Source of the DNA: Paramecium tetraurelia
Taxonomy: Eukaryota; Ciliophora; Oligohymenophorea; Peniculida; Parameciidae
NCBI RefSeq assembly: GCF_000165425.1
Contig: NW_001799643.1
Location: 156,886 to 220,885, forward strand
Reading direction: 5' to 3'
DNA: 64,000 nt
Shown here piece by piece: positions 27,639 to 37,490 of this stretch. Made by a program: the position numbers and the translations under genes. The notes under the pieces were generated by a model. The model saw nothing but the letters and a program-made list of their open reading frames with translations, searched no databases and had not been told where the DNA came from. Within the stretch, counting starts at the first letter, position 1; every line of letters starts with the position of its first letter.

Positions 27639-30044
27639 ATGTTGCTTAGGCATCCTCCAAAAAATAAAATTCCAGCAAAAATGAATAATAGACTGATGGT
27701 ATGTGAATCTACAGCGGATGATAATTCTGTTGTTTAATTGTGTCAAGATAAGTTGAATGAATTGAAATTATTTAAAGGAGATATGGTTTTATTGGAAGGG
27801 AAAAACAATAAGAAAACAGTAGCAATAGCAATTTCAAACCGATAGGATAAAGAATCAGTCCATATGAATTCAGTTATTAGAAAGAACTTAGGGATTTAAA
27901 TTGGTGATTTTATTACAATTTAACCAACAGCATCTGTATCTTATGAATTATCAACTTTAGCTGCCTTAATTAACTAAAGTTCACATACTACCATTCCAAG
28001 ATTCAATTTCAGGAACAAATGAGAAAAACCTCACTTAGAATTATTTAATTCCATATTTTTTGGATGCTTATCGACCTGTTTCAAAAGGGGATTGTTTTGT
28101 TGTCAAGATGGCTAAGGAAATAGAGTTCAAAATTATTGCAACAGAACCAGAAGATATGGGAGTGGTTGGACCTATTACTATTTTGTACACTGAAGGAGGA
28201 ACAGTCAAAAGAGAAATTGAAAATAAAGAACAATTTGATAATTAAAGTGATGAAAATTAAGTCAAAGATGGTTATGCAAATATTGGGGGAATGAATAAGC
28301 AATTAACAATAATCAAAACAATTGTTGAATTATAGTTAAGGAATCCTTCAATTTTAAAAGCATCAGGATTATAAACTATTAATGGATTATTGATATCTGG
28401 AGCATCTGGATCTGGAAAGACATTAATTGTCAAAGCTTTGGCTATTGAAACAGGTGCAAACATATATTTTCTCAATGGATCTGAACTAGTAAGTAGAAAA
28501 CAAGAGGAGGCAGAGAATATAGTTAAAAAGGTATTTGAACTTGCAGAGACAAATACACCTGCTATTATACTCATACAAGATATTGATTGTATAGCTATAA
28601 AAAAAGGTGAGGGTAAATCTTAGATGGATAGAAGACTGCTGTCTTAATTAGTAACGATAATGGATCACTTATAAGGAGTTGAAAAGTTAATTGTTATCGG
28701 GGAAACAAATCAACCTGATTGCATTGATCCAGCATTAAAGAGGTTTGATAGATTCGATAAAGAAATAGAACTTGGAGTACCGAATGAAGAGGAAAGAATG
28801 GAGATCTTAAAAATACACACTAAAAAAATGAAATTGGCTTAAGATATTGATTTAGCATATATTGCCAAAGCTACTATAGGGTTTGTTGGTGGGGATATTG
28901 CTGCACTTTGTAAATAAAGTGTTTTATAGTGCTTAAAAGATAAAATGGATTATCTAAATATAGATAATCAATAATTGGATGATATGACCTAAGAAATCAT
29001 TACGGTTACAAATGAAAATTTCATCAGTGCATTAAGAACAATGAAACTCAATGATTTAAATAAGTATTCTATTGAAGTACCTAATTTGAGATGGAAAGAT
29101 ATTGGAGATCTATAGGACATTAAAAAGTAGCTTCAAGAAATAGTTGCTTTGAAACAAAACTATTCAAAAGGTTTGAAATAATTTGGGTTGCAATTATCCA
29201 AAAACATTATACTATATGGTCCTTCCGGATGTCGTAAGAAGTCTCTAGCTAAAGCTTTGGCAGGTGAAAATTCTATGAATTTCATATAAATTAAGAGACC
29301 TTTGTCAAGTCAATATTTAAAGGAGATATTTAGTGCAGCAAAACAATAATAACCTTGCATTTTATTATTTGATTAATTCGACTTATTTTTCAGAAAATAG
29401 AGTTCTGATGATATACAAGATGCTCAGCTTAATTAGCTATTCATTAGTGAATTGGATAATGTCCTTAATGAAGACAATCTATTCTTTATAGGAATATCCA
29501 ATAAGCCAGACATCTAAGATGATATTAGATTAAAAGAGAGATTCAATTATTTTATCTATGTTGGATTACCAGAATTTCAAGCAAGGATAATTGAATTCAA
29601 AATTAATTTAAAAAATACTCCAATTTCTTAAGATGTGGATTTAAATTCCCTTGCTTAATTTACTGATGGTTTCTCATGTTATGATATAAAATAAATTTGT
29701 TAAAATGCTAAAAAGGCTGCTTTGAAAGAAGTAATATATTAGTTTAGATTTAGATGATTGATGCATAAGAAAACGCAAAAGGCACATCCAAAAATTACTA
29801 ATAATTAGATTCTTTTCCTCAAATTACAAGATAGCATTTCGAAACTTCATTATAATAAACTTAAAAGTCATACACTTATCATGTAAATTAAAATTATTAT
29901 AAATAGCAAATTTCATAAATCTAAGGTTTTCAAAAATCACTTGTTTAGTAATAAAAATCCAATAAAGCCGATTTCAAATTCTAATGGCCTCTAACAACTT
30001 CGAAAGAAAATCAGATGGAAGAGATTGAAGAATAAATTTCCTGA
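27639..30044 (+). CDS. divergent CDC48/p97-like AAA+ protein with degenerate ATPase motifs
   Basis: Predicted 785 aa, introns at 27936-27960 (25 nt) and 29731-29753 (23 nt); spliced frame closes. The N domain matches p97 well ([41 protein letters not shown]). D1 has an intact Walker A (GASGSGKT), but Walker B is IILIQDID where p97 has DE, so the Asp is Gln; SRH is KRFDRFDKE, with the second arginine lost. D2 Walker A is GPSGCRKK instead of GPPGCGKT, Walker B is LLFDQFD (Glu to Gln, codon TAA), and the D2 arginine-finger segment is lost (KERFNYF). So D2 can hardly hydrolyse ATP and D1 is doubtful. It is full length and in frame, so likely expressed rather than dead. The C-terminal PQITRQHFETSL helix is retained. 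Confidence 0.9.
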
Positions 30045-30304
30045 TGTTATTTATTTGATATAATAATATTCATTTAAAATAGTAAGTTCTTAATTTTGTA
30101 ATTTTAAAAGAGTCAAATTAATATAAAAATTTTAATATAAATTATAGAGAGCAATGCTCACTTATATTTCTACTCTTAATAAGAGTGCTGCTTTTTTAAT
30201 TATTAAAAATTTCTTGATAAATTCGCCTTCCTTCATCATATTAGAATATTTAAATTTTTTTTATTTAGATAGAAATAATAAATTATATAATTTTAATATA
30301 TTTT
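30045..30304. other. short convergent intergenic region
   Basis: AT-rich; lies between the stop codons of the CDC48-like gene (plus) and the BLTP2-like gene (minus). No feature recognised. Confidence 0.5.
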
Positions 30305-33300
30305 TCATCCAAAAAGCTTTTGCCCAATAATCGAAAATATCTATGTTGAAATTTGCTTAAGAACAAAAGCGGCAAATTCATCAAATTGCTAAGGTTTAGA
30401 TATAATTTATACATCTTTTGTGGTGGTGAACTATTTAGGTGATTTATAGGGTTCTAATTATATAGTGACATCTTTAAATCTCTTAATTTTGGATGGGTGT
30501 TTGAATGTGGCCACTAATTTAAGTTCGCTTACTTATAAAGAATTGAAATAATCTGGGATTTATTTAGATATATTCTCCATTGCAGCTAATATATAATAAT
30601 ATAAGAGATACATTTCATTTATTCCTTCTTTTCAATGCTTAATCTATTATTTCTTTGTGTAGATTCATCTCCGAAGAAATAATTATAAAACTGATCATAC
30701 AATTCATCGGTCAAAATGATTGTTAAGGGATTCATCTTAATGTCATGTTAATCAATTATAAACCATTTTTATTAATATATCTGAAGAGGATAAAACTTTT
30801 TGATCATTCTGAAAAAGGGTTACTGTTTGGATTCTTTGATCTCTTAACTTAATACCATTTTGTAATCAGGATCTTACTCAATTTTATTAATTGCATCTAA
30901 ATCCTAGAGTAGAATATCAATTTTGTGACTATCATTCTCAAAAACAGTTTCAATGATTCTAATTTATCTGATATTGAATAAAATAAAGCTGATTTCTTGA
31001 TCATCCAATAATGATAGACTTGTTTCCTTAATGGCATAATCTAGTTTTGATTTTTCAGCCCCATAATGTTCTAGATTTTCTGAGATTTTCTTCTTAATCA
31101 TTTGATCAAGTTATTTTAAGCCATACTAATTCAATTCTTTTAATTTATTTCTACAGAATCTCTCTTTGTTTTCAAATTCATTTTTTGTAGTCACTGCCAT
31201 TTCCATAAAAGTTACCATATCTAAGAATTGATCTAATTAATATTTCTTCATTGTTGCATTGAGTTATCCAACCTTTACTTATACTATAGGTCTCCTTAAT
31301 TCTTAATTCCAATAATTAGGATTGTGTTTCTTATTATTTGATGAGGATATTTCTGTGAAATCTCTGGTATTTTCTCTTAACTGATAACTTTAGATCTAAA
31401 ATAGAGCATAATCACATTTAATAATCTTTTCATAATCTTGACTAGTGAATCTTACAGTCTACTTGGCATCTAAATGCTTTTGTAATACTTGACAATCTAA
31501 TCCATTGAATATCAATTTGGTAACTAGTTTTTTATCGATTTCTTGGCTATCAAATGGTAGAATATACTCTGACATTATAATCTAGCAATCTTTGGGTGAG
31601 GTTAGGATCATTTGACAATTAGCATTGTGATATTAGAAATTGAATTGAGGATTGACCAATGAAACCATCAATATTAATTCTTCTCTACTATAGGATTTGG
31701 GTTTGGATTAATCTAATTGCATATCAAAGTTTTATTTAGCCTCTTTATTCTAAGGTATTTCAAGACTCTCAAACACATTACCCCAGATGTCTTATAAGTA
31801 AAATGTAAATAGAAACTGACTATCCAAAGCAGAAATGAAATTCTTTATTATTTTCTTGGTCATAACAGTATTAGTATTGTTCTCCTCATCTTCATCCAAC
31901 AAATCTATTTTCTAGTTCTATTTATACTCTAATGATTTTGCTTTTAAGAAGATGTCGAAAGCATTAAATTCATTTTTTGGTTATGGTTTTATTTGAATGC
32001 CTGATGCTCTGCCTCTGACTTTAACATCTTCGAGTGAATCCTCCAAGTATGACTCATCAGTTTATAAATTAAATAAGTGATATTGTGGAGTAAGTGTAGT
32101 ATTAATGATGAAGGGTTGTTTAAGGAACTTCTTCAATTTCTTCAATTCATGGAAAGTCATGTTTTACAAGTTCTATGATTGATTTAATTCACTCTAATAG
32201 TAGTCTACTGGTTGAATGTCAAAGAAGTTTACAAACTATTATTGTTAACCCAAAGGTTCTGGCTATTCCATGTCCAACATTTGTTTTCCATCAAACATAG
32301 AAGATACCAATTGGTCACATCTTGCTGCGATAGATTGGACTTCGAATCTCCATTCGTTATCAATTCTATTAGGTTCTAATTGGACATTGACCTTCAAAGA
32401 TTGAAGTAAGGCTTAAAATCCAATAAATGGGACATCTTTATATTTCAGAAATGTCTCATTGTGTTATACTGGTTTTTCTGAGTTTGTAAAGAACATTCTA
32501 AATTTATTTGAATAGACTCTAATGTTAACCTTCTTTGTATGTTAAAATAATGACTATTTAATCATCAAGGATTCCATCAATTTTATGTATGTATAATTAA
32601 CCAAAGTCTTATAATCAGCATACATGTTCCATTCCATCTCGTACATTTGATTGTCCATCACTTGTGGCAATTTATTAATTTACACTGAAAACATTCTCAA
32701 TACATCATGTCTCAAAATGGGTCTATTCTTCAACCATCTCATAAACTAGTTCTAATAATGGATAAAGAAACAATGCTTTTGTTGATCTCTAAAATTAGAT
32801 TCCTTATAATGTTCATATTGAATGCAATCGACTTTAACTTCGATTTGCAATTATTGACTTATAAAATCATTTAAGCTACTATTTATTTAATTAAAGTAAG
32901 GTTTTCTCATATAAAAGTAATGATCGTATTGATCTTTTTGAGCAAACCAGTTGAATTCAGTAATCATCTAGATTCTTGGAATGTAAAGTACTTTTTAGAT
33001 TTTTGGAATTCTACCCAATTTAAGTTTATCAGCTTAGCCTTTTAAGGTCCAATTTAAAAATTCAACGTTTAATAACTTCGATGAAAACTTAATGCAATCA
33101 ACTGAATAAGGCAATATGTCTGTTGTGATTTACAAAATTAAATGATCAAGTTGAAAGTGCAATTTCCCATGGAATTTTAATCTGAATCTATCCCAAAATG
33201 TCAATTACTCCTTTATTACTATCTTATTTTGCTATTAATTTACACTTTGACCCATAATTTGATTAATTCTATTGGAGATTTCTCGGAAAGCAAATACTAA

Positions 33301-36021
33301 ATTCAATCCTGCTGCTATTTATAATTATTTGGTCTCCAAATTTAAATCATAAAACACTCTAAACCCAATCTATATATTTTAGGTGTTCAATCTTGAAATA
33401 CATAGAAATGTGTTTAATTTGATACCTCTTATATCGAGGATATTTAACTTATAATCCCTTAGAGATATTCTAATTTATTCCAATGAAATCTCACAATTGG
33501 CCAACTCAAAGTACTCAAAGAAAGACTCATCTAATTAAGTTGGATGAGAATCTAATTTCGTAATCTTATCAAGTACTTGATTGACAGTCAGATTTTATTT
33601 CTTTAATTTTAGATTGATATTCTAGAATTTCAAATGCAATAATGGATATGATTATTATGTTTTTAACCCTTCCAATACTCTACTTTCATTCTGTCTGCTT
33701 TTGATTGTTTCAAACTTCTCTTAAAATCTTCTGTATCTACACATCGCATCATTTAGTTTTGTGTCTTTAATAATGACTTCAAAATTTATGATACTAAGAT
33801 TAGTGTTTTTTCCAAAGATCGATCTAACCTTTGTGGTGACATCTTAATCGTTAGGTATTTTTTTAAGAACCCCATCATGAGAGGATCTTCTCTTCTTCAA
33901 TTAGGACGTGTCAATCTCTTCTTGATTAATGTCAAAGATCTACTTTCTAGACACAATAGTGTTCATTTATTTAATACCTTATAGGAATACATTAATATCT
34001 CTAACTTCCTCTTCAAAATTGAGGATGGCAGACTTAATATTAATTTACATCAATTCAGCACTACTTTTGGTTTGAATTTGATCAATTACAAATAGGGATT
34101 ATTCCTGAAATTTAATTGAGAATTAATTTAAATCAATATTATTAGGATCTTTGGTATTGATTTCCAGAAGATTCACTTCAGCCAAGAAGGGTTTAGCCAG
34201 ATATTTGAGTTTAATTTCTTTGCAATTGACGATTTTATCTTTGATTACTGGTTTATTGGCTTTTGATTTCTTTTTTTCTAAAGGTGTCAATTTGAATGAA
34301 GTAAATTTGGACAATTATTATCTGAATATTTTCTAAAGCTAATAAATTCTTAATATCTTTTCAATGTTGATTTACTCTACCAATAATTGAAATGTATTGA
34401 AGGTGTAATTCACTATTTGAGCATTATTTTGCATTTTGAAATCTTTGATTAATCCATCTGTTTAGCTAATATTGCTTGTAATCTGGCAATTGTCAAATGA
34501 AATTTAAGATTCATTAACATCTCCTTCATTTGAAATATAATGAAATTTATTAATAGTGATTGAATTAATAATTGCACCATCAAAGATTAAATTAATTTAA
34601 AATTTATTAGTAATTAAAAAATCAAAAGAAGTACTTAATGCACTGTTGAGATCAATATTCAGAAATTCACAGCACATCTCCTTAGCTATACGATTGTATT
34701 TTTTAAAATATTTGCTTTATTCATAGTTTTCTACAAATGCAACTCTGAATTCTGATGCCAATTCAGTTTAAATAAGAGTAAAAAATTTAATCAGTTAAGG
34801 AGATAAATTAATGGTAAGATCTCCAAATCTGATGAAATGTTTTGTGTGATCATTAGAATGCACAGTATTGCTGGATATGGATTCAAGGTTCCAAGAAATA
34901 TCTTAGAATTTAATATCTTCTTGTAAAGTATTCACAGTAAACTGTTTACATTAGATAATGCCTTTTTTGGTTTAATCTGTATCGACGATATCAAATTACC
35001 CATAATATTTCAAATGTTGCCATTCAAACACAAGTTTGTTTTGAGTATACTTAAAAAACTTTTAGGTTAGGATGTTGAAGGAATTCTTTTTCTCATTATC
35101 GGAATCATTGAAGATACTGAATTCAATCTTGAAGGAGGCGAAATTAAGATTCATTTCTCTGGGTTTTCCTAAAAACATGAATCCTCTTTCATTGAATTGT
35201 CGTTTAAGAATTTTATTAATATCTGGTCTGGTCCAAAATTCATTGGCTAAGACGTCCATAGTGTAGAAATATTCACTTTTACAAAACCAACGGACCTCCT
35301 GGATGTTGACATCTATGTAGCTGTGTTCTTCTAATAGATCTACCAAAAGTCCAGGTTTAGTGATTGCATTTAAATTAATAGTATTAATTGTGAAACATTG
35401 ATGCATGTTGGCTCCTTCGCTATTGAGTTTCCATTGAAGATGACCGTTTTGATTTAGGTGCAAAGATACTGATGTCTAGCCCAATCTCAAGGTCATATCT
35501 GGCAAATCCTTCTCTTTGGAATTGAGTTTTGGCAGGGTGACATTGATTGCATTGAAATGGATGTCGAGGCGAGAGAGGGTTAGGAAAAGACAATTGATGG
35601 CTGAAGATTCCAAAAGCAAGGATAGGAATGGGATTTGTTTGGTTTTACGATGTTGAATTTTTTGTTGAGTGTAGGGGAGGAATTTGGATTTGAGTCTTTC
35701 CATATACAATTATTCCTCAAATTAAAAGCCGATTTTGATAGGTTGGTTGGGAATGAACCTTAAGTTCAAATCAGCGATATTGACATTAAATCTCCACTGA
35801 TTGGGGACTTTTGAAATTTGTATACGTGCTATATTTACAACAACTATTATATGTTTCTTGTATTAATATCTTAATTCCATATTGTAAAGCGAAAAGGGTA
35901 TGTATGAATATTGGAGAGCAAGGACTTTCTTATGGAACCGAGCCAACCACTTTATCCATACAGGACAAAATAGAATGATTATTAAAATAGCATTGATTAT
36001 TAGAATCAATGTATTAAACAT
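30305..36021 (-). CDS. BLTP2 / Hobbit / FMP27 / SABRE-type bridge-like lipid transfer protein
   Basis: Predicted 1896 aa with a single 26-nt intron near the 3' end (30586-30611); total frame closes. The N-terminus is one membrane helix (about residues 3-24, LILIINAILIIILF), which anchors such proteins in the ER. Then follow ~1800 residues of alternating beta-strand pattern typical of RBG-fold lipid bridges (for example PFLSLLLESSAINCLFL; MNLNFASFKIEFSI). The C-terminus has FYPLQIYQQKWF, MNPLTIILTDELYDQFYNYFF and ISTQIFSIIGQKLFG, which correspond in order and content to the conserved end of FMP27/Hobbit (a ...PLxIxLTYxLYKxIMxYFF-like stretch, then a beta segment and amphipathic helix). These proteins move bulk phospholipid at ER-plasma membrane contacts (family knowledge). 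It starts 23 bp after the IFT52 stop. VPS13/BLTP1 families are less likely because of length and C-terminus. Confidence 0.8.
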
Positions 36022-36044
36022 ATTTGTATATTTATTAATAAATC

Positions 36045-37490
36045 TCAACCCTAATTTAGTTTTTTAAAATTGATCAAATTCTCTAGAACATAGTGAATGA
36101 CTGACTGTGCCTTCTGTCTATTCTTGAGTTTGTCTGTGATCCCAATGATGTCCCCTGCTTCCTTAACATAGTATTCTAAATCGTCGTTGCTGCATTTGTT
36201 TGTCAATTAGGCTAATCTCACTCTAATTATGATAAGATGGGAAGATCACTTCTCGGATGCAAACTCTTCATCCAAATCAAATAATTCGAGAGGAGGAGGA
36301 GGCAACTCTCTGGGGATAGGAGGAAACAAGGCAGGCTATAATCCCAACAAAGGAGTTTCAAATTGGGGTACAATCAGAGTTAAGGGTTCATGTTTGACAG
36401 CTAATTGACATACATAAATGTGGATTACAAAGAGTTTCATATAATTTAACAGCATCAGGAATCATATCTAGATCAAATTTAAATAGACTGGAATCAAACA
36501 AGGTAGTCACATCCTTAGGCAATTCCTCACTCTCTTATAGACAACTCTTAAGCTTCTCTGACAATTCTGCAATGTCTGGAGCATTCTTATTTTCTGACTC
36601 ATTGAATGGAGCCTTTTTGTCAAATTCGACATCTTTACTAAAATAAAATTTAAGCAGAAAATCGAAAATCTTCTGATTGTCATCCTTCTCAAAGTATTCG
36701 TCATTAAACATGTCCGTAGAACCTACAACCACCAACTTCCCTTTCTCTTAATTGATGGCCATTATGGGTCTTTCACACGGATAAGACATAGGTCCAGTCG
36801 AAAGAACTGCGAACGCTTTGTCCTTCACAACCAAAGTGGCTCCATTGGGATACACGAAATCCAACCCTCCATTATTGTTGATCTCTGATTCCTCTAGTTC
36901 AATGACTCCCTACAAATAAGGAGTGGAACCCTTGGTTTTTCGTGTTTCCTTTTGATCTCCATTGATAACTCTAACTATCTATTAATTTAATGAGTGAATC
37001 GATTACCTCTTGATTTATCACTCCCTACTATATATAGGCTTCTTTGGGATGAAAATATTTAAAAAAGCATGTTCTGACCACGCAGTCGTTATTCGCATAT
37101 ATTCCATACTTTTCTATTAATGCATTTAAATTGCTTGTGGATTTGTTCTCTCCGCCTTCAGAAAACATGATCAATATGTTTCCTCCATTATTGAGATATT
37201 CCTCAAGACACTTTATTTCTAATCATATCAATCAAACATCTAACCTTTCTCTGTAAATGGAGCTCTGGAACCTCCTAAAATTACTAAATTTGCACTCCTT
37301 AATTTTTCATACACTAAATCATCCTTATGTAATCCAAACTAGATAATTCAAAAATTCAGAACTCACCTTATATTATCCCTTGTACTTCTTCAGTATCTTC
37401 TTGTAATTTTGATTTGGATTCCCTTGTTCATTCTTGCCCACATTAAATATGATCTTATTATATACATTCTTATACTTAGAGTTCAGACAT
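36045..37490 (-). CDS. IFT52: IFT52, intraflagellar transport complex B subunit
   Basis: Predicted 428 aa (human 437) with six introns, 22-28 nt: 37454-37475, 37339-37366, 37219-37244, 36979-37006, 36401-36428, 36223-36249; the spliced frame closes. IFT52 is a core IFT-B1 subunit needed for anterograde transport and cilium assembly. Diagnostic stretches: YLNNGGNILIMFSEGGENK, NNDCVVRTCFFKYFHPKEA, FAVLSTGPMSYPCERPIMA, VVVGSTDMFNDEYF, CLQESEELPKDVTTLFD, the Pro-rich ELPPPPLELFDLDEEF and C-terminal CSNDDLEYYVKEAGDIIG, all matching IFT52 in order. The start MSELQIIFNV appears only when the first intron is removed. It is divergent from DNALI1, whose ATG is 121 bp away. Confidence 0.96.

What the first reader, a model, noticed from the sequence alone, without database searches (positions are those of the whole stretch)
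27639..30044. Full-length CDC48/p97 relative whose D2 ATPase has lost catalytic motifs, with Glu-to-Gln by a one-base change to TAA
The gene is in frame over 785 codons with two clean introns and a well-kept N domain, so it does not look like a pseudogene. Yet D2 has GPSGCRKK for Walker A and a Walker B with DQ in place of DE, the same Glu-to-Gln swap used as a laboratory substrate trap. D1 Walker B is also altered (IQDID) and one D1 arginine is Lys. The Gln at D2 is encoded by TAA, one base from GAA and only possible in this genetic code. A substrate-binding pseudo-segregase, or a poisoning partner of true CDC48 in mixed hexamers, would be new biology (inference).
Basis: partly seen in the sequence, partly recalled or inferred. 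Interest (0 to 1): 0.72.

Follow-up and report, generated by a model that had tools for sequence, protein, structure and literature searches.

The report
Non-catalytic CDC48 relative in Paramecium
This ciliate carries, beside two normal copies of the protein-unfolding machine CDC48/p97, an old third copy whose engine parts are altered but whose partner-binding head is better kept, so it looks like a machine part reused as a binding or regulatory protein; no experiment has tested this.

Summary
Window 27639-30044 (+) encodes 785 aa in ciliate code with two short introns and CDC48 N, D1 and D2 domains. The genome also holds a canonical CDC48 pair (C196, C202). Lesions exceed those listed: D1 Walker B is QD; D2 Walker A is GPSGCRKK and Walker B DQ; D2 pore loop 1 (WF) is deleted; one D2 Arg finger is Lys; the C-terminal LYG motif is absent. 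D1 keeps Walker A, sensor 1 and both Arg fingers.

The gene is an old duplicate within the Paramecium lineage (shared intron sites, AU test), with no recognisable copy at the sister duplicated locus. D1 and D2 are 3-4 times more diverged from canonical than human and Paramecium CDC48 are from each other; the N domain is not, and the frame is intact.

Best reading: a hydrolysis-dead pseudo-CDC48 kept for N-domain binding. A laboratory-style substrate trap is not supported, as D2 lost pore and nucleotide-site residues. Losses are not concentrated at catalytic sites, so general relaxation fits as well as targeted inactivation; recent decay is not excluded. Co-assembly, expression and orthologues could not be tested.

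The parts
27639..30044 (+). whole gene, ATG to TGA, 785 aa, ciliate code (TAA and TAG = Gln)
27639..27935 (+). exon 1: residues 1-99, first part of the N domain (CDC48_N, Pfam 66.1 bits over residues 18-97)
27936..27960 (+). intron 1, 25 nt, GTA..TAG, at the same aligned site as a canonical CDC48 intron (KPLDQ|VPTLTK in the canonical copies)
27961..29730 (+). exon 2: residues 100-689, second part of the N domain, D1 and most of D2
28399..28422 (+). D1 Walker A GASGSGKT (GxxGxGKT kept); coordinates worked out from the residue numbers and read
28573..28587 (+). D1 Walker B region IQDID (D304Q, E305D); coordinates worked out and read
29218..29241 (+). D2 Walker A GPSGCRKK (G523R, K524 kept, T525K); coordinates worked out and read
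29365..29382 (+). D2 Walker B LFDQFD (E578Q, Gln encoded by TAA at 29374-29376); coordinates worked out and read
29731..29753 (+). intron 2, 23 nt, GTA..TAG, at the same aligned site as a canonical CDC48 intron (AAVRD|AIEAE in the canonical copies)
29754..30044 (+). exon 3: residues 690-785, end of D2 and the tail ...EEIEEQIS without the DDLYGN end of the canonical copies, then TGA

Best explanation
An old duplicate of CDC48 in the Paramecium lineage that has become a pseudo-ATPase and is retained for what its N domain binds. Shown from sequence: N, D1 and D2 are all present; D1 keeps the nucleotide-binding loop and both Arg fingers; hydrolysis residues of both rings are altered; the D2 substrate-gripping loop is missing; the N domain is less relaxed than the rings. 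Inferred: D1, possibly with ATP bound but not turned over, holds a ring or smaller oligomer; the N domains recruit CDC48 cofactors of the Ufd1-Npl4 or UBX type, or their clients; with no motor and no C-terminal LYG tail the protein cannot thread substrates or hand them to tail-binding cofactors. It would act as a scaffold, buffer or competitor for CDC48 cofactors rather than as a segregase.
For: Three loci with a CDC48_N domain were found in the genome: this one and the canonical pair (4 of 4 candidates scored); the whole-protein search gives the same three full-length loci (57 of 87 candidates scored). Tree: this protein with the Paramecium pair against human, Arabidopsis and 10 prokaryotic CDC48s, support 99.3/100; two alternative placements rejected, AU p 0.0079 and 0.0095. 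Its two introns sit at two of the four canonical intron sites. Distance to C202 divided by human-C202 distance: N 0.85 (0.61-1.19), D1 2.97 (2.20-4.18), D2 2.91 (2.22-3.91). ML terminal branch over human-C202 path: 0.73, 3.61, 3.77. Residues shared by human and both canonical copies and kept here: Nn 31 of 47, Nc 29 of 42, D1 109 of 196, D2 84 of 196. Of 10 SHP-groove positions (named in passages of PMC5042407), 5 equal the human residue here against 4 in canonical Paramecium; Y143 of the UBX site is kept, Y110 is changed in both (UBX residues from passages of PMC5389986). Intact frame and splice sites; GC 0.374/0.282/0.219 by codon position against 0.17-0.18 in flanks. Ufd1-like (3) and Npl4-like (2) loci are present.
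Against: No expression, protein or orthologue data. Measured against the human-Arabidopsis distance the N domain is accelerated too (ML ratio 1.87, against 4.95 for D1 and 6.10 for D2). About a third of the N residues shared by human and canonical Paramecium are lost (60 of 89 kept). Three N-domain positions that I recall as disease sites near D1 are changed (R93G, R95Q, R155K). The gene is single copy, its sister duplicate is not to be seen, and losses are not focused on catalysis, all of which also fit slow decay.
Confidence: 0.5

Rival explanations
1. A regulatory subunit that enters mixed hexamers with canonical CDC48 and slows or poisons them. Its kept Arg fingers complete the neighbour's D1 site while its own sites and its missing D2 pore loop break the translocation cycle.
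For: D1 Walker A, N348, R359 and R362 kept; D2 K524, N624 and R638 kept; D1 is the next best kept domain after N (128 of 251 identical to C202). The Pex1/Pex6 heterohexamer shows that a type II ring can carry degenerate AAA domains (passages of PMC10518020).
Against: Both ring-forming domains have diverged about three times more from canonical than human and Paramecium CDC48 have from each other, which makes matched interfaces less likely. R635K and a one-residue deletion next to it alter the D2 finger. Interface residues were not examined: no coordinates were available.
Confidence: 0.22
2. A gene on its way out: recently freed from selection, now drifting, with the frame not yet broken.
For: Single copy whose sister duplicate left no recognisable trace (tblastn best E 7.3); lower GC than the canonical copies (0.291 against 0.374-0.38); general loss of invariant residues in D1 and D2.
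Against: 785 codons with no TGA or frameshift and intact splice sites: at 0.1 neutral substitutions per site 10 of 500 simulations stay intact with no indels, and 0 of 500 at each of the three indel rates tried. pN is below pS in all three domains (N 0.25/0.745, D1 0.279/0.611, D2 0.389/0.658), although pS is near saturation. The domain-specific difference is not what uniform decay gives. A very recent release is not excluded: at 0.01 substitutions per site 43 to 318 of 500 simulations stay intact, by indel rate.
Confidence: 0.2
3. A working ATPase with unusual chemistry: D1 still binds and slowly hydrolyses ATP using the shifted acidic residue (QD), and the protein remodels clients from the D1 side without D2.
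For: D1 Walker A, sensor 1 and both fingers kept. One of the 10 prokaryotic CDC48s, Halomarina, also has Asp in place of the D1 Walker B Glu, though with the preceding Asp intact.
Against: D304, invariant in all 14 others aligned, is Gln; the D1 glycine of the intersubunit motif is His (G334H); D2 lacks the aromatic pore loop 1 that contacts substrate in p97.
Confidence: 0.06
4. Assembly error at the motifs.
For: Both canonical CDC48 copies in this assembly carry extra bases in or near homopolymers that shift the frame, so base-level errors may occur in it.
Against: The lesions are many, spread over two domains, mostly substitutions and whole-codon deletions, and the frame of this gene is clean.
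Confidence: 0.02

Closest known systems
Canonical CDC48/p97 (here the own-genome pair C196 and C202; human p97)
   Same: N-D1-D2 order over the whole length (358 of 765 aligned residues identical to C202, 303 of 723 to human); two intron sites shared with the Paramecium copies; tree placement beside them
   Different: Walker B of both rings, D2 Walker A, D2 pore loops 1 and 2, one D2 finger and the C-terminal LYG motif are altered or absent; protein branch 1.07 against 0.054 for the branch to the canonical pair
Laboratory p97 E578Q / Cdc48 E588Q mutants
   Same: the same D2 Walker B Glu-to-Gln residue; the best PDB sequence match (9yrc, 600.4 bits, next chains 600.0 and 599.9) has Gln at 578 in its printed alignment, and such mutants are used to slow translocation (passages of PMC13087191)
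   Different: those mutants keep Walker A and the pore loops; here Walker A is GPSGCRKK and pore loop 1 is missing, so the trap mechanism does not carry over
Pex1/Pex6 D1 ring
   Same: a degenerate AAA ring kept as structure (passages of PMC10518020)
   Different: there the D2 ring is active; here both rings have altered hydrolysis residues, and the N domain is of CDC48 type
SELMA Cdc48 of complex red plastids
   Same: a diverged second Cdc48 beside the canonical one
   Different: ciliates are named among the lineages missing from that subtree (passage of PMC5070193); no SELMA sequence was put in the tree here

Membership tests
CDC48/p97 family (by descent) | CDC48 N domain followed by two AAA domains | tested here: met
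   Pfam CDC48_N 66.1 bits (cut-off 35.1), AAA with two stretches, AAA_lid_3 with two stretches; CDC48_2 just under its cut-off at 21.4 of 22.4
CDC48/p97 family (by descent) | groups with CDC48 in a tree | tested here: met
   99.3/100 with the Paramecium pair; two alternatives rejected by AU
CDC48/p97 family (by descent) | C-terminal HbYX / PIM motif | tested here: not met
   canonical copies end EEDDLYGN, this one EEIEEQIS; the motif is a feature of canonical members, so its loss does not undo descent
active CDC48 segregase (by function) | Walker A and DE Walker B in D2 | tested here: not met
   GPSGCRKK and DQ
active CDC48 segregase (by function) | DE Walker B in D1 | tested here: not met
   QD
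active CDC48 segregase (by function) | aromatic D2 pore loop 1 and charged pore loop 2 | tested here: not met
   W551 and F552 deleted; R586Q, R599A
active CDC48 segregase (by function) | ATP-driven unfolding | not testable with these tools
   needs protein
E578Q-type substrate trap | D2 Walker A and substrate-gripping pore loops intact beside the Glu-to-Gln change | tested here: not met
   by sequence only: T525K, G523R, A685Y and the pore-loop deletion
Pex1/Pex6-like heterohexamer | co-assembly of two different type II subunits | not testable with these tools
   no structure or interaction data; structure prediction switched off
pseudogene | broken frame or splice sites | tested here: not met
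pseudogene | dN/dS near 1 | tested here: inconclusive
   pN below pS in every domain, but synonymous sites near saturation and no orthologue available
SELMA Cdc48 | groups with red-plastid Cdc48 | not tested
   no such sequence fetched

The most novel reading that the evidence does not exclude
A long-lived second CDC48 subunit that forms mixed double rings with canonical CDC48 and acts as a built-in brake or adaptor-selecting subunit. It would be a further natural heterohexameric type II AAA machine besides Pex1/Pex6, which PMC10518020 calls the only one known (passage).
Probability: 0.18. Interest if true: 0.8.

Novelty: new variant of a known kind. Interest (0 to 1): 0.5.

Why it matters
CDC48 is usually described as a homohexameric, essential motor (general knowledge). 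A retained paralogue with both ATPase rings disabled and the cofactor-binding domain kept would separate the binding role of CDC48 from its motor role in a natural system. Paramecium can be silenced by feeding RNAi (recall), so the idea is testable in vivo. If it is only slow decay, it still shows how the domains of a duplicated AAA machine lose constraint at different rates.

Tried and rejected
Rejected: that Gln by TAA is special (36 of 68 Gln codons are TAA). Rejected: that the D1 Lys is a lost Arg finger. Rejected: that the gene is the genome's only CDC48. Not shown: targeted catalytic loss. Led nowhere: relatives in viral contigs with the window exon (no relative) and with a canonical-human alignment (one distant AAA protein); genome contigs with the exon alignment (one distant AAA protein), where the two short patterns used lay in the N domain; synteny of the canonical loci with the window (11 ORF matches, all at window 9-14 kb or 58-59 kb, none near this gene); bacterial-type promoter scan (5 sites found against 4.6 expected). 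Literature: in the listings of searches I saw no paper on a catalytically altered CDC48 paralogue in Paramecium or another ciliate. Those were made for cofactor sites and the E578Q mutant; one search listed 15 of 63 papers; most subscription papers are not held. This is not proof of absence. dN/dS against orthologues could not be done: I found no other Paramecium genome in the collections offered.

Error corrected: the neutral simulation took one codon too many (past the TGA) and is void; one search replaces it. The GC values stand, with that one extra codon in them.

Full report
What is there. The window lies in an assembly of 69.07 Mb in 231 contigs (G000:C224:156886-220885). The gene runs from 27639 to 30044 on the + strand, with introns at 27936-27960 (25 nt) and 29731-29753 (23 nt), 785 codons and a TGA stop. 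Pfam finds CDC48_N, two AAA stretches and two lid stretches; CDC48_2 falls just under its cut-off. The best PDB sequence matches are p97 chains (600 bits).

Motifs against the canonical copies. The genome holds two canonical CDC48 genes, C196 and C202. As read they differ at 4 of 823 residues, and their flanks match collinearly at 77-83% DNA identity. Both have full Walker motifs in both rings, a TMWFGE pore loop and a DDLYGN end. In the window protein D1 keeps GxxGxGKT, N348, D333, R359 and R362, but D304 is Gln, E305 is Asp and G334 is His. D2 keeps K524, D577, N624, D609 and R638, but has G523R, T525K, E578Q, R586Q, R599A, G610N, R635K, G684C and A685Y, an 8-residue deletion that removes W551 and F552, and a shortened pore loop 2. 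That W551, F552, R586 and R599 line the D2 pore is from a passage of PMC5389986; sensor, intersubunit and pore-loop positions are in passages of PMC10216129; finger and Walker A numbering is partly recall. The tail lacks the LYG end, whose p97 residues Leu804 and Tyr805 bind PUB and PUL cofactors (passage of PMC5389986).

Origin. Among 15 sequences (this one, the pair, human, Arabidopsis and 10 plasmid-borne prokaryotic CDC48s) the protein groups with the Paramecium pair with support 99.3/100, on a branch of 1.07 against 0.054 for the branch to the pair. Placing it outside the eukaryotes sampled, or with human and Arabidopsis, is rejected (AU p 0.0079 and 0.0095). No other ciliate or alveolate was in the tree, so the duplication is dated only to somewhere after the split from plants and animals. 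Its two introns lie at two of the four canonical intron sites, so it is not a retrocopy. Where human and Arabidopsis agree, it shares a differing state with C202 at 44 sites (25 N, 7 D1, 12 D2) and keeps the human-Arabidopsis state where C202 changed at 22 sites (10, 2, 10); it alone differs at 203 (22, 80, 101). Synonymous differences to the canonical copies are near saturation (pS 0.66 and 0.69).

The sister locus. The flanking frames have duplicates on C225, with dS 0.68 and 1.30. Between them on C225 no CDC48 remnant is seen (best tblastn E 7.3); a methyltransferase-like ORF lies there instead. Either the sister copy was lost or this gene moved in after the duplication; the two cannot be told apart here.

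Constraint. Identity to C202 is 95 of 163 in N, 128 of 251 in D1 and 103 of 263 in D2. Relative to the human-C202 distance, N is 0.85 (0.61-1.19), D1 2.97 (2.20-4.18) and D2 2.91 (2.22-3.91), by bootstrap over columns. ML on the fixed tree gives 0.73, 3.61 and 3.77; relative to human-Arabidopsis it gives 1.87, 4.95 and 6.10, so N is accelerated too on that yardstick, but by less. Between human and C202, N is the most diverged domain; on the branch to this protein it is the least. Neutral simulation of this gene: at 0.1 substitutions per site 10 of 500 runs keep frame and splice sites without indels, 0 of 500 at indel rates of 0.02, 0.05 and 0.1; at 0.01 substitutions per site 318, 221, 121 and 43 of 500 do (fractions times 500). 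GC by codon position is 0.374, 0.282, 0.219, with flanks at 0.17-0.18. A long neutral phase is therefore unlikely in the extreme; a recent one is not excluded.

Against a targeted change. Among columns invariant in the 14 other sequences, 13 of 19 functional and 37 of 62 other columns are kept in D1, and 9 of 21 and 23 of 38 in D2; in N 4 of 4 (Fisher p 0.59 for D1 and 0.28 for D2). I chose the functional sets from p97 motif positions, partly from recall. So the rings have relaxed as wholes; the Glu-to-Gln change is one of many.

Cofactor sites. Of the 10 SHP-groove residues named in PMC5042407 (passages), 5 equal human here and 4 in canonical Paramecium. Of the UBX key residues Y110 and Y143 (passage of PMC5389986), Y143 is kept and Y110 differs in both. 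The N domain is thus about as human-like at these sites as the canonical one. The genome has 3 Ufd1-like and 2 Npl4-like loci.

Mechanism. I favour a hydrolysis-dead CDC48 kept for N-domain binding (0.5). A mixed-hexamer brake (0.22) and recent decay (0.2) remain open.

Literature. Nine paper searches (one search held no paper) listed no work on such a paralogue that I could tell from titles and the starts of abstracts. I read only passages found by term in PMC5070193, PMC4770206, PMC5389986, PMC5559722, PMC5042407, PMC10216129, PMC13087191 and PMC10518020.

Limits. No orthologues, expression, reads or structure. Base errors may occur in this assembly: both canonical copies carry extra bases that shift the frame.

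Noticed in passing
L001 and L002 (G000:C196, C202): Both canonical CDC48 copies carry extra bases that shift the frame (1 in C196, 2 in C202, in runs of A), which suggests assembly errors.
   Followed up: partly
L043:3583-4443 (-), G000:C225: At the sister duplicated locus a SAM-dependent methyltransferase-like ORF (Methyltransf_11, 49.4 bits) occupies the interval where this gene lies in the window.
   Followed up: partly
L066, L067, L068 (G000:C134, C192, C93): Three Ufd1-like loci diverged from each other (leading tblastx pieces 53-75% identical), in a genome with two canonical CDC48 and two Npl4-like loci.
   Followed up: partly
window 30073-36267 (-): A 2065-codon open frame with no Pfam match at E 0.01 and a close duplicate on C225 (81% identity over the 967 codons searched); its stop lies 26 bases beyond this gene's stop.
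   Followed up: partly
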